Origin: Desulfobacula toluolica Tol2
GTDB taxonomy: Bacteria > Desulfobacterota > Desulfobacteria > Desulfobacterales > Desulfobacteraceae
Direction: 5' to 3'
DNA length: 64,000 nucleotides
NCBI RefSeq assembly: GCF_000307105.1
Contig: NC_018645.1
Coordinates: 5,133,906-5,197,905, forward strand
In this document: piece by piece, positions 59,578-62,805 of the stretch
Layout: each line of letters begins with the position of its first letter
Numbering within the stretch: the stretch's first letter is position 1
The notes under the pieces: model-generated
The model's input: only the letters and a program-made list of their open reading frames with translations
Database searches by the model: none
Told to the model about the DNA's origin: nothing
Translations under genes and position numbers: made by a program

Positions 59578-60751
59578 AAAAATTTTAACTCCGGGTATTC
59601 TTGTGCTGCTGGTTTTCATGGCAGCGGGCGCAATTGCTGTTATTGCCAGATTTACCGGCGGCATAGGCTACGTAACCAACTTGAGTAATGCAAGGCCCTG
59701 GGGGCTATGGGTGGGGGTTGATGTTGCAACGGGAGTCGCCCTTGCTGCAGGCGGATTTACAACTGCTGCCCTTGCTCATATTCTGGGAAAACATTATTAT
59801 GAACCCATTACCCGTCCCGCATTGTTAACAGCCGCTCTGGGGTACACCTTTGTTGTCCTGGGACTGCTGGTTGATATCGGCCGTTCATGGGCCATCTGGA
59901 AACCCATGTTCAACTGGAACACAAATTCAGTTCTGTTTGAAGTAGCCATGTGTGTAATGGTTTATCTGAATGTTTTGTATATTGAATTTTTTCCAATCAT
60001 TGCAGAACAATTCAAAGGCAAGGTAAATCTTCCGGGTTTATTGTCCGCATTCAATGGCCTGACAGACTGGATACTCACCATCGGGGATGCAATTTTGGAT
60101 AAAATCATGTGGATCTTTATAATTTTAGGCGTTGTGTTGTCCTGCATGCATCAGTCAAGTTTAGGTTCACTGATGCTTGTTGCACCGACCAAGCTTCATC
60201 CGTTATGGTATACGCCGATTTTACCGCTGTTGTTTTTAACATCAGCATTTGCTGTGGGCTACCCAATGGTCGTATTTGAAACAACCATTGCAACCGCTTC
60301 TTTTAAGCTGGATTCAGAGATGAATATATTGTCTCCTTTAACCCGTATTACCATTGTTCTTTTGGGCATCTATATGTTTCTCAAACTCGGAGACCTGGCA
60401 GTCAGGGGAACCTGGATTTATCTTTTAGACGGAACATATCAAACCAATTCATTTGTTGTGGAGATGCTTTTTGGAGTAATAGTGCCGTGGATAATGCTGC
60501 TTTTTACAAAGATTAGAAATTCAAAAACAGGAATTTTTACAGCCGCATCCTTGATTGTGGGCGGCGTAGTACTGAACAGGATAAATGTGTTCATCGTAGG
60601 ATACAAACCGCCATTGAGCGAAAATGTCTATTTTCCGGCACCCGGAGAAATATTTGTCACCCTGGGTCTTATCGCAACTTTGATGTTTGTTTATAGAATT
60701 GTTGTGACCTATTTGCCGGTTTTACAAGAATCCAGGGAGGTATCCCCATGA
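59552..60751 (+). CDS. NrfD/HmcC/HybB-like quinone-reactive membrane subunit
   Basis: This 399-residue integral membrane protein of the NrfD/PsrC superfamily has about ten hydrophobic helices. NARPWGLWVGVDVATGVALAAG and GLLVDIGRSWAIWKPM are family-typical, as is CMHQSSLGSLMLVAP. It starts at ATG 59552, within the tail of the ferredoxin gene, with AAGGAGGGG upstream. It is expected to oxidise or reduce the menaquinone pool for the redox complex. Its stop overlaps the cytochrome start. Confidence 0.92.
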   Translation: MMKASPLNKKILTPGILVLLVFMAAGAIAVIARFTGGIGYVTNLSNARPWGLWVGVDVATGVALAAGGFTTAALAHILGKHYYEPITRPALLTAALGYTFVVLGLLVDIGRSWAIWKPMFNWNTNSVLFEVAMCVMVYLNVLYIEFFPIIAEQFKGKVNLPGLLSAFNGLTDWILTIGDAILDKIMWIFIILGVVLSCMHQSSLGSLMLVAPTKLHPLWYTPILPLLFLTSAFAVGYPMVVFETTIATASFKLDSEMNILSPLTRITIVLLGIYMFLKLGDLAVRGTWIYLLDGTYQTNSFVVEMLFGVIVPWIMLLFTKIRNSKTGIFTAASLIVGGVVLNRINVFIVGYKPPLSENVYFPAPGEIFVTLGLIATLMFVYRIVVTYLPVLQESREVSP

Positions 60752-62805
60752 TAAGAAAAAATATTTTCACGACTGTTTCTGTTATTTTGAAAGGTTTTTT
60801 ATTTTTGACAGGTCTTGTGATTTTAACAGCGCAATTGTGTGAGGCAAAGACCTGGACAGCTCCGGATCAGGAAAAAGCAAAAGAAAAAGCAAAAGAGGTT
60901 GTCCCGTTTATCAAAGAGTACAAGGATGACCATCAGATTGTTCGTAAAATTCGTTTGATGGATGCGGGAATTTCATTAAAAGATGTTACAGATGTATATT
61001 TTTTATTGGACAGTCCCATCATAAAAAAAAGAGAAAATCATTACGAGCCTGTCAGATTTGCTCATAAAAGGCATGCCGCCCTTACCAAAGACTGCAGCAA
61101 ATGCCATCATTACAGGCCCAAAGATGAAACAGCCCTGGAAACAACAAGGTGTTCAGCCTGTCATCAGGACTCTTTTAATTCGGATCATCCTGAGCGTATA
61201 GGCCTTAAGGCGGCTTACCATCAGCAGTGCATGGAATGTCATAAGACAGAAGCCAAAGGCCCTGTGGATTGCAAAGGGTGCCATCTGCAGAATGTGCCGG
61301 ATCACAAGGAACTGGTGAAACTGCCAAAGAATGCAGATCCCTTCCAGGTGACAGCAGAATGTTTGAGATGCCATGACACCCAGGCTGAAGATATGCTGAC
61401 CACGGCCCACTGGCTGTGGAAAGGCCCGTCTCCATATACAACGGGTCATCGAAAGGATATCATGCATGGAAAGGGCTCAACAGCCCTGAACAATTACTGA
61501 ATCAGTCCAATCAGCAACGAGGCTCGTTGCACAAGTTGTCATGTAGGATATGGATGGAAAGATGATTCTTTTGATTTTACTGATAAAACCAAGTTAGATT
61601 GTTTGATATGCCACGATACAACGGGCAAATATAAAAAAAACCCGCCCGGAGCAGGCATGCCGACAAAAGATGTTGATTTGAATTTTGTAGCTGAAAATGT
61701 AGGTCATAGCAGCCGGGCAAGCTGCGGTTCATGTCATTTTAACGGTGGCGGAGGGGATGCCATTAAACATGCGGATATGTCAAGGCAACTTCTGGAACCA
61801 AGTCGAAGCTGTGATGTCCACATGGGTGGATATGATTTTTCCTGTACCCAATGTCATAAAACACGGAATCATAAAATTGCAGGCAGAAGCTCTTCTGTTC
61901 CTGTTGCCGAAGGAAAAGTATCCTGCGAGCAATGTCATTCAGGATCTCCCCATTACAGCGGCGGTCTTTTGGATCACCATTTAAACAACCATTCAAAAAC
62001 CCTTGATTGCAATGTATGCCATTCACCGGTTTTTGCAAAATGCAAACCCACCAAGACGTGGTGGGACTGGTCAAAGGCAGGGGATAAAAAACGAAAACCA
62101 CAAAAGGACAAATATGGAAAGCCTGATTATAACTGGAAAAAAGGTGAATTTAAATGGGAAGAGTCAGCCGTACCTGATTACGCATGGGACTCGGGATATA
62201 TGAATCGCGTGTTAATGGGAGACAAAGTTGATATCAATGCTGATGTTATTAATTTAACAGAACCTGTCGGCTCCATTAATGATCCAAATTCAAAAATCAC
62301 GCCATTCAAGATTATGAAGGGAATTCAGCCGGTTGATGCGGACCATGATCATATCATTATCCCCCATCTTTTTCCACGCAACAAGGATGACACAACTGCC
62401 TATTGGAAAAATCTTGATTGGGAAAAATCTTTTCAAGATGGCATGAATGCAGTAGGGCTTGAATACAGTGGATCATACAAATGGAAAGAAACCTGGATGT
62501 ACTGGCGTCTGGAACACGAGGTGATGCCTGCAAACATGGCATTGTCCTGTGTTCAATGTCATGAAAGCCTTAAAGGCGAACAAACCTGCAACCGATGCCA
62601 TCAGGACAATCGCAAAGTTGATTTCAAACAAATTGCCCATAAGGGAACGGATTTTTCATATATGAAATCCAAAGGAAGAGATGTCGGGCATTTGATTGAA
62701 AAAACAGATTATATAGATTTTAAAGCCTTGGGGTATAAAGGAGACCCAATTATTTACGGCGGTCGATTCAAAAAACTGCCCATGGGATACAAACAACATA
62801 AATAA
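60748..62805 (+). CDS. 13-haem cytochrome c with tetrathionate-reductase-type octahaem domain; predicted selenoprotein (Sec251)
   Basis: The frame from ATG 60748 (GGGAGG upstream) meets TGA at 61498-61500 (codon 251) and runs on in frame to TAA 62805, total 685 residues. A signal peptide covers residues 1-33. Thirteen CxxCH sites are present: four in a class III-like domain (residues about 95-195: CSKCH, CSACH, CMECH, CKGCH), then CLRCH before the UGA and CTSCH, CLICH, CGSCH, CTQCH, CEQCH, CNVCH, CVQCH and CNRCH after it. CTSCHVGYGW, CLICHDTTGKY and CGSCHFNGGGGDAIKH mark the octahaem tetrathionate reductase family. The context ALNNY-U-IS is where that family has, as I recall, a conserved Cys. 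A SECIS-type hairpin follows at 61514-61530. Substrate unknown; a sulfur oxyanion or other small oxyanion is plausible. Confidence 0.82.
61514..61530 (+). promoter_or_regulatory. Predicted bacterial SECIS hairpin of the multihaem cytochrome
   Basis: GCAACGA (61514-61520) and TCGTTGC (61524-61530) are perfect 7-bp arms around a GGC loop. The stem begins 13 nt and the GG apex 20 nt after the UGA, within the window SelB requires. The hairpin also encodes SNEARC, so its presence is compatible with the protein sequence. Confidence 0.7.

What the first reader, a model, noticed from the sequence alone, without database searches (positions are those of the whole stretch)
60748..62805. Apparent selenocysteine-containing multihaem cytochrome c
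Seen: TGA at 61498-61500 splits an otherwise continuous 686-codon frame. Both sides are c-type cytochrome, and the downstream side lacks its own signal peptide and any good start or ribosome-binding site, which a separate exported cytochrome would need. A perfect 7-bp hairpin with a GG-containing loop begins 13 nt after the TGA. Known: bacterial Sec insertion needs such a hairpin directly downstream, and the octahaem tetrathionate reductase family has a Cys near this place as far as I recall. Inferred: UGA encodes Sec at an active-site position. The same window has two other Sec genes, so the host decodes UGA. I know of no described Sec-containing multihaem cytochrome c.
Basis: partly seen in the sequence, partly recalled or inferred. 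Interest (0 to 1): 0.93.

Follow-up and report, generated by a model that had tools for sequence, protein, structure and literature searches.

The report
Selenocysteine-containing thirteen-haem respiratory cytochrome
A bacterial gene for a haem-rich protein carries a UGA codon exactly where many relatives carry a conserved cysteine, with a hairpin just after it, so it is predicted to insert selenocysteine at what is likely the active site of a quinol-fed periplasmic reductase.

Summary
Window 60748-62805 is one frame broken only by TGA at 61498-61500. Read through, it gives a 685-residue protein with 13 CXXCH motifs: a cytochrome c3 domain joined to an octahaem tetrathionate reductase (OTR, TIGR04315) domain. 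The TGA aligns with residue 64, a Cys, of the solved Shewanella OTR (1sp3).

In 174 aligned family rows the column is Cys in 94, TGA in 79 and a gap in 1. Of the 79 TGA rows, 77 have a 7-bp stem-loop at one of two fixed distances; no Cys row does. Two different hairpins occur (47 and 29 rows in the cleaned set). Each goes with loss of a proline that Cys rows mostly keep (68 of 76 with the motif). Two Cys genes nested in the window's Sec clade lack the hairpin although their genomes carry SelB. SelA, SelB and tRNA-Sec are in the genome.

The gene follows an iron-sulfur subunit and an NrfD-type membrane subunit, so it is likely a menaquinol-linked periplasmic reductase; its substrate is unknown.

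Added here: the c3-fused membrane-complex form, two SECIS solutions and Sec/Cys switching.

The parts
60748..62805 (+). Sec-containing c3-OTR fusion cytochrome, 685 aa, 13 CXXCH motifs
61498..61500 (+). in-frame TGA, predicted Sec251; aligns with Cys64 of 1sp3
61514..61530 (+). predicted bacterial SECIS hairpin (class A): 7-bp stem, loop GGC, loop starts after 20 nt
60748..60849 (+). N-terminal hydrophobic stretch, predicted export signal (by eye)
   Evidence: sequence
61027..61284 (+). cytochrome c3 domain (PF02085, residues 94-179), four CXXCH motifs
61333..62568 (+). OTR domain (TIGR04315 match, residues 196-607)
61528..61542 (+). CTSCH motif of the second OTR haem (residues 261-265), overlapping the 3' arm of the hairpin
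61765..61767 (+). Lys340, aligned with Lys153 of 1sp3 (recalled as the axial ligand of the active-site haem)
59552..60751 (+). NrfD/HybB-type membrane subunit (start inferred); its stop overlaps the start of the Sec gene
58636..59577 (+). HybA/HmcB-type iron-sulfur protein with a twin-arginine-like start (MQFSRRNFFK)
58197..58442 (+). TusA-like protein without the Cys of the TusA CPxP motif (GVISPIDLLK); found near the operon in close relatives
56529..57926 (-). divergent sigma-54-type transcriptional activator, found beside the operon in many relatives; link inferred

Best explanation
The gene encodes a thirteen-haem cytochrome in which a UGA codon, placed where many relatives have a conserved cysteine, is predicted to be translated as selenocysteine with the help of the hairpin that follows it, and the protein is likely the catalytic subunit of a menaquinol-linked periplasmic reductase. 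Shown by sequence: the frame, the c3 and OTR domains, the Cys/TGA column, the hairpin and its absence in Cys relatives, the Sec machinery, and the gene order of an iron-sulfur protein, an NrfD-type membrane protein and this cytochrome. Inferred: SelB with tRNA-Sec binds the hairpin and inserts Sec251; the NrfD-type subunit takes electrons from menaquinol and passes them through the iron-sulfur subunit and the c3 haems to the OTR haems; at the second OTR haem, with Lys340 as axial ligand, the Sec selenolate stands next to the substrate, binds it or splits it as a nucleophile, and is re-reduced by the haem chain. The substrate is most likely a sulfur oxyanion or polythionate, less likely nitrite, hydroxylamine or selenite.
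For: Column: 94 Cys, 79 TGA, 1 gap of 174 aligned rows, with TGA masked as X during alignment; the gap row, L077, is a frame-broken copy. Random stops would also give TAA and TAG: among matches over the TIGR04315 cut-off, 24 of 96 in 97 genomes and 31 of 79 in a 395-genome phylum sample have exactly one TGA, and none has TAA or TAG. Hairpin: 75 of 79 TGA rows have at least 7 Watson-Crick pairs with G in the loop, against 0 of 94 Cys rows, which reach 4 at most; two more TGA rows reach 7 pairs with one G-U. It meets the bSECIS limits quoted in PMC13188914 (loop 3-9 nt, stem 4-16 bp, G in the first two loop positions, 16-37 nt spacing). Machinery: SelB 358.7 bits, tRNA-Sec 76.5 bits, SelA 605.6 bits. 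RNA constraint on protein: Pro before Arg in 68 of 76 Cys rows with the motif, 0 of 47 class A, 0 of 26 class B with the motif. Complex: NrfD-type gene directly upstream in 32 of 32 c3-fused Sec loci with room to see it and both partners in 27 of 28, but in 0 of 45 and 0 of 41 other OTR loci; NrfD, c3 and OTR occur fused in one chain, P0097.
Against: No protein or selenium measurement was available. The AlphaFold2 model has mean pLDDT 68.5 and is poor around residues 240-264 and 323-391, which include Sec251 and Lys340, and its match to 1sp3 has low TM-scores (0.36 and 0.54), so the site's geometry is not supported by the model. SelB is nearly universal in the sampled group (over cut-off in 84 of 97), so its presence does not discriminate; one TGA-bearing genome, G007 (77% complete), has no SelB over the cut-off. 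TGA rows were fetched on purpose, so 79 of 174 is not a prevalence. Two distant TGA rows, L194 and L195, have neither hairpin. Synonymous shuffles gave only a mean z of -0.99 for TGA rows. Substrate and electron direction rest on family analogy only.
Confidence: 0.85

Rival explanations
1. The TGA is a true stop: the gene is a pseudogene or holds a sequencing error.
For: Public collections hold the C-terminal part as a separate protein; the window's own 382-aa fragment is P0053.
Against: The same codon is TGA in 79 of 174 rows; over-cut-off matches show TGA but never TAA or TAG inside; the downstream frame is conserved; a hairpin is kept in TGA genes and absent from Cys genes.
Confidence: 0.02
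2. Two proteins are made: termination at TGA, then re-initiation downstream.
For: An internal TTG start at 61603 opens a 400-aa frame.
Against: The OTR domain is split between its first and second haem motifs, and the TIGR04315 match spans the break; the stop sits exactly on a Cys column.
Confidence: 0.03
3. UGA is read, but as Cys, Trp or another residue by suppression or reassignment.
For: The relatives' residue is Cys.
Against: Sec machinery is present; a bSECIS-type hairpin is specific to TGA genes.
Confidence: 0.03
4. The Sec cytochrome is real (this rival shares that part; the confidence is for the direction alone), but the complex runs the other way, oxidising a periplasmic sulfur or nitrogen compound and feeding menaquinone, or serves as an Hmc-like electron conduit rather than a terminal reductase.
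For: NrfD-type subunits can work either way (general knowledge); the membrane partners also match Hmc subunits, though under cut-off.
Against: The named family and the solved relative are described as reductases; a catalytic-site Cys/Sec would hardly be kept in a mere conduit (inference).
Confidence: 0.25

Closest known systems
Octahaem tetrathionate reductase of Shewanella oneidensis (PDB 1sp3; TIGR04315)
   Same: phmmer E 4.3e-116 over residues 185-606; top Foldseek match of the model, E 7.7e-34, though with TM-scores of 0.36 and 0.54; eight OTR haem motifs; the Lys153 and Cys64 positions conserved as Lys and as Cys or Sec codon.
   Different: Sec codon instead of Cys64; fused to a four-haem c3 domain and carrying one further CXXCH; encoded with iron-sulfur and NrfD-type subunits.
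Sec-containing TIGR04315 protein WP_331457571.1, a GenBank-annotated row in a 2026 selenoproteome review (PMC13188914)
   Same: Same family, listed as a selenoprotein with the figure 1 in its count column.
   Different: In the passages seen the review gives one table row, with no position, architecture, SECIS or context; I could not see that protein, so whether it is c3-fused is unknown.
ExtKL multihaem cytochrome selenoprotein of Geobacter (NF040886)
   Same: A c-type cytochrome proposed to contain Sec, in a gene cluster tied to selenite reduction (PMC5877670, passages; review table).
   Different: Five haems; NF040886 was not among the window protein's matches.
Hmc, Nrf and Hyb type membrane modules
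   Same: Iron-sulfur protein plus NrfD-type membrane subunit, with a multihaem cytochrome in Hmc and Nrf (recalled).
   Different: HmcB 343.9 against cut-off 420, HmcC 280.7 against 550, NrfC and NrfD far under cut-off, HybB-type 329 against 450; only HybA passes (274.7 against 263).

Membership tests
TIGR04315 octahaem tetrathionate reductase family | Score over the curated cut-off (375 bits) | tested here: met
   489.9 bits for the read-through protein; 439.1 for the downstream part alone
TIGR04315 octahaem tetrathionate reductase family | Eight CXXCH motifs in the OTR domain | tested here: met
   Motifs at residues 205, 261, 285, 326, 366, 393, 421, 601; a further one at 614 and four in the c3 domain
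TIGR04315 octahaem tetrathionate reductase family | Lys at the Lys153 position (recalled haem ligand) | tested here: met
   K340; same residue in 167 of 168 rows
TIGR04315 octahaem tetrathionate reductase family | Cys or Sec at the Cys64 position | tested here: met
   TGA at the column; 94 Cys, 79 TGA, 1 gap of 174. Of 18 fetched sub-cut-off relatives, 16 Cys, 1 Ala, 1 Pro
TIGR04315 octahaem tetrathionate reductase family | Tetrathionate reductase activity | not testable with these tools
   needs enzyme assay
Bacterial SECIS element (bSECIS) | Loop 3-9 nt, stem 4-16 bp, G in first two loop positions, loop 16-37 nt after UGA | tested here: met
   Loop GGC, 7 bp, 20 nt; limits quoted from PMC13188914. 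bSECISearch itself was not run
Bacterial SECIS element (bSECIS) | Binds SelB and directs Sec insertion | not testable with these tools
   needs experiment
Selenoprotein gene | Host has SelA, SelB and tRNA-Sec | tested here: met
   SelD not searched
Hmc complex | HmcB and HmcC over their cut-offs | tested here: not met
   343.9 of 420 and 280.7 of 550
TusA sulfur carriers (the 58197-58442 protein) | Pfam TusA over cut-off | tested here: met
   36.8 against 28.6 bits
TusA sulfur carriers (the 58197-58442 protein) | Cys of the CPxP motif (motif recalled) | tested here: not met
   GVISPIDLLK; Ser, Phe, Leu or Ala at that place in the relatives listed

The most novel reading that the evidence does not exclude
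Nature has built a haem-selenolate catalytic site: Sec sits over a lysine-ligated c-type haem in a large respiratory family, possibly binding the iron or a second metal, and lineages switch it between Sec and Cys by gaining or losing one of two unrelated hairpins that rewrite an otherwise conserved proline.
Probability: 0.2. Interest if true: 0.85.

Novelty: new variant of a known kind. Interest (0 to 1): 0.55.

Why it matters
In a phylum-wide sample, 31 of 79 OTR matches over the cut-off carry the TGA, so many public records of this enzyme are likely cut short; 7 of the 120 listed homologues are 382-405-aa fragments at 83-100% identity to the window's protein. The family also gives close Sec/Cys pairs, such as Desulfospira joergensenii and Desulfobacter vibrioformis inside the window's Sec clade, to ask what selenium buys a haem enzyme, and a view of an RNA hairpin changing the protein it lies in.

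Tried and rejected
Pseudogene, re-initiation and reassignment were considered and rejected (see rivals). Synonymous-codon shuffles of the hairpin region with a pooled codon table gave modest z-scores (mean -0.99 for 79 TGA rows, -0.11 for 94 Cys rows; the two sets differ, p 6e-9). That table was drawn from the same codons, so I added a stem count and a codon-use probability. Class A stems do not vary in the 47 rows, so covariation says nothing there; class B has one pair changed on both sides (C-G to T-A in 3 of 29) and one G-U variant in 2 of 29. I sought a sigma-54 promoter consensus: 29 matches in the window at up to two mismatches, fewer than the shuffled mean of 40.7, and none between the activator and the operon. 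The structure model was not good enough to place Sec next to a haem. Literature: Pereira 2011 on sulfate-reducer complexes was not held; Mowat 2004 on OTR was seen only in reference lists and its structural details are recalled. Sec-OTRs outside the window's phylum were not sampled systematically; the 32 most distant named loci, L080-L111, which include the non-Desulfobacterota ones, are Cys.

Full report
What is there. The window is the last 64 kb of a one-contig genome of 5,197,905 bases. PMC5109826 gives 5.2 Mbp for Desulfobacula toluolica Tol2 (passage), and several of the close named relatives are Desulfobacula, so this is probably that organism; no call names it. The reading frame 60748-62805 is open except for TGA at 61498-61500. 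Read through, it has a hydrophobic N-terminus, a cytochrome c3 domain at residues 94-179 (PF02085), an OTR domain at residues 196-607 (TIGR04315, 489.9 bits against a cut-off of 375) and 13 CXXCH motifs.

The residue. phmmer against solved structures puts the TGA codon on a Cys of 1sp3, the Shewanella octahaem cytochrome (E 4.3e-116). Counting along the chain, that Cys is residue 64, and a Lys kept in 167 of 168 rows of my alignment is residue 153. That Lys153 ligates the active-site haem and that Cys64 lies close by is recalled from Mowat et al. 2004, which was not held. I aligned 174 non-identical OTR-family frames (of 199 found) with TGA masked as X: 94 Cys, 79 TGA, one gap in a frame-broken copy. 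Five short pieces and exact duplicates were dropped before this count, and TGA genes were fetched on purpose, so the ratio is not a prevalence. For prevalence, exactly one TGA lies inside 24 of 96 over-cut-off matches in 97 genomes, the window's own among them, and inside 31 of 79 in a 395-genome phylum sample (at most four candidates a genome were scored there); these are hand counts of the listed rows, with no TAA or TAG among them. In 18 more distant, sub-cut-off relatives the residue is Cys in 16, Ala in 1 and Pro in 1, with no TGA.

The hairpin. 75 of 79 TGA rows have a stem of at least 7 Watson-Crick pairs with a G in the loop, at one of two fixed places: loop after 20 nt and 3 nt long (48 rows), or after 24 nt and 4 nt long (27 rows). 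Cys rows: 0 of 94, longest 4. Two more TGA rows have 7 pairs with one G-U; the last two, L194 and L195, belong to a distant group and have neither hairpin. In the cleaned set, class A (GCAACGA-GGC/GTC-TCGTTGC, 47 rows) pairs 47 of 47 at all seven positions, and class B (mostly CTGGTGC-AGGT-GCACCAG, 29 rows) 29 of 29, G-U included. The class A codons AGC AAC GAG GCT CGT TGC are the same in 43 to 47 of 47 rows, while nearby codons for invariant residues vary, for example Ser at codon 12, His at codon 14 and Gly at codon 18. Both classes meet the bSECIS limits quoted in PMC13188914. The genome's own HdrA Sec gene folds into a hairpin with the class B loop AGGT.

RNA writing protein. Where Cys relatives read xNxPRC, Pro is kept in 68 of the 76 Cys rows that have the motif (the others: Ala 6, Glu 1, Thr 1; 16 more Cys rows lack the motif). 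Class A rows have Ala (43) or Ser (4), and class B rows have Cys in 26 of 26 with the motif, 3 lacking it. The hairpin thus goes with a changed residue next to the second haem motif.

History. On a FastTree of 168 rows (six rows of the 174 left out: L073, L077, L195, two of L194, one of L135), built without the trait columns, Cys, class A and class B need 7 changes (shuffled mean 66). Class A occurs in the c3-fused clade (41 rows) and in six classic OTRs; class B in 23 classic OTRs and in a group of six. In an IQ-TREE quick tree of the c3-fused part (64 rows) the label needs 3 changes, at least 2 forced by starred branches. Desulfospira joergensenii (L043) and Desulfobacter vibrioformis (L050) sit inside the Sec clade with a TGC codon, no hairpin, and Pro at the place. 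That looks like loss of Sec without loss of the machinery; the root is not inferred, so direction is an inference.

Machinery. SelB (C1:1491973-1493868), tRNA-Sec (C1:3528197-3528290) and SelA (C1:1256865-1258226) are in the genome; SelD was not searched. Of 23 genomes with a TGA match over the cut-off, the window's included, 22 have SelB over the cut-off; G007, 77% complete, does not. SelB is over the cut-off in 84 of 97 overall, so this is permissive, not discriminating.

Setting. Upstream lie an NrfD/HybB-type membrane protein whose stop overlaps the Sec gene's start, a HybA/HmcB-type iron-sulfur protein with a twin-arginine-like start, and a TusA-like protein lacking the motif Cys; a sigma-54-type activator is divergent. 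Among 39 c3-fused Sec loci, the NrfD-type gene is directly upstream in 32 of the 32 with at least 1.6 kb of upstream sequence, and both partners are there in 27 of the 28 with 2.6 kb, the exception being the rearranged L169. For c3-fused Cys loci it is 12 of 12 and 8 of 8; for other OTRs 0 of 45 and 0 of 41. One class A row, L076, fell into a separate score band and also has both partners. Two classic Cys OTRs (L103, L110) have more distant versions of both partners (27-36% identity) downstream instead. A single-chain NrfD-c3-OTR protein exists, P0097, and in nine of ten Cys rows of a neighbouring clade (L014-L020, L022, L027; L013 is too short) the NrfD-type match lies in the same open frame as the OTR match. 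This supports a membrane complex; that it oxidises menaquinol and reduces a periplasmic substrate is inferred from the Nrf and OTR analogies.

What is known. Searches for selenocysteine or selenoprotein with octahaem or multihaem cytochrome or ExtKL terms (one search listed 10 of 12,228) led to the 2026 review PMC13188914 (passages), which lists TIGR04315 (GenBank annotated) and ExtKL as selenoprotein families, and to PMC5877670 (passages), which calls ExtKL of Geobacter a 5-haem cytochrome proposed to contain Sec and tied to selenite reduction. So a Sec-containing OTR is known at the level of annotation. I found no description of its position, SECIS, c3-fused complex or Sec/Cys switching in those searches.

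Verdict. Real, well-supported selenoprotein gene; mechanism plausible, substrate open; kind already listed, this form and its two hairpins not found described in the searches named.

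Noticed in passing
   Followed up: partly
L194 and L195 (TGA in YUAPPN): A distant octahaem group under the TIGR04315 cut-off has an in-frame TGA aligned to the same column in two genomes, without either hairpin class; possibly another Sec cytochrome.
   Followed up: partly
window 58197-58442: TusA-like gene whose motif Cys is replaced, found near the operon in close relatives; role unknown.
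   Followed up: partly
window 58450-58481 and 62813-62844: The same 32-nt inverted-repeat-like element (GGGCAGAC..GGTTTGCCC, one base different) follows both the TusA-like gene and the Sec gene.
   Followed up: no
window about 62900-64000: A long AT-rich stretch is repeated at the end of the genome record (seen by eye).
   Followed up: no
L169: In one single-contig genome the operon looks rearranged, with the iron-sulfur gene inverted and the cytochrome match cut short, while the TGA and hairpin remain.
   Followed up: no
window 3965-4157 (+): Cobalamin riboswitch, 105.4 bits.
   Followed up: no
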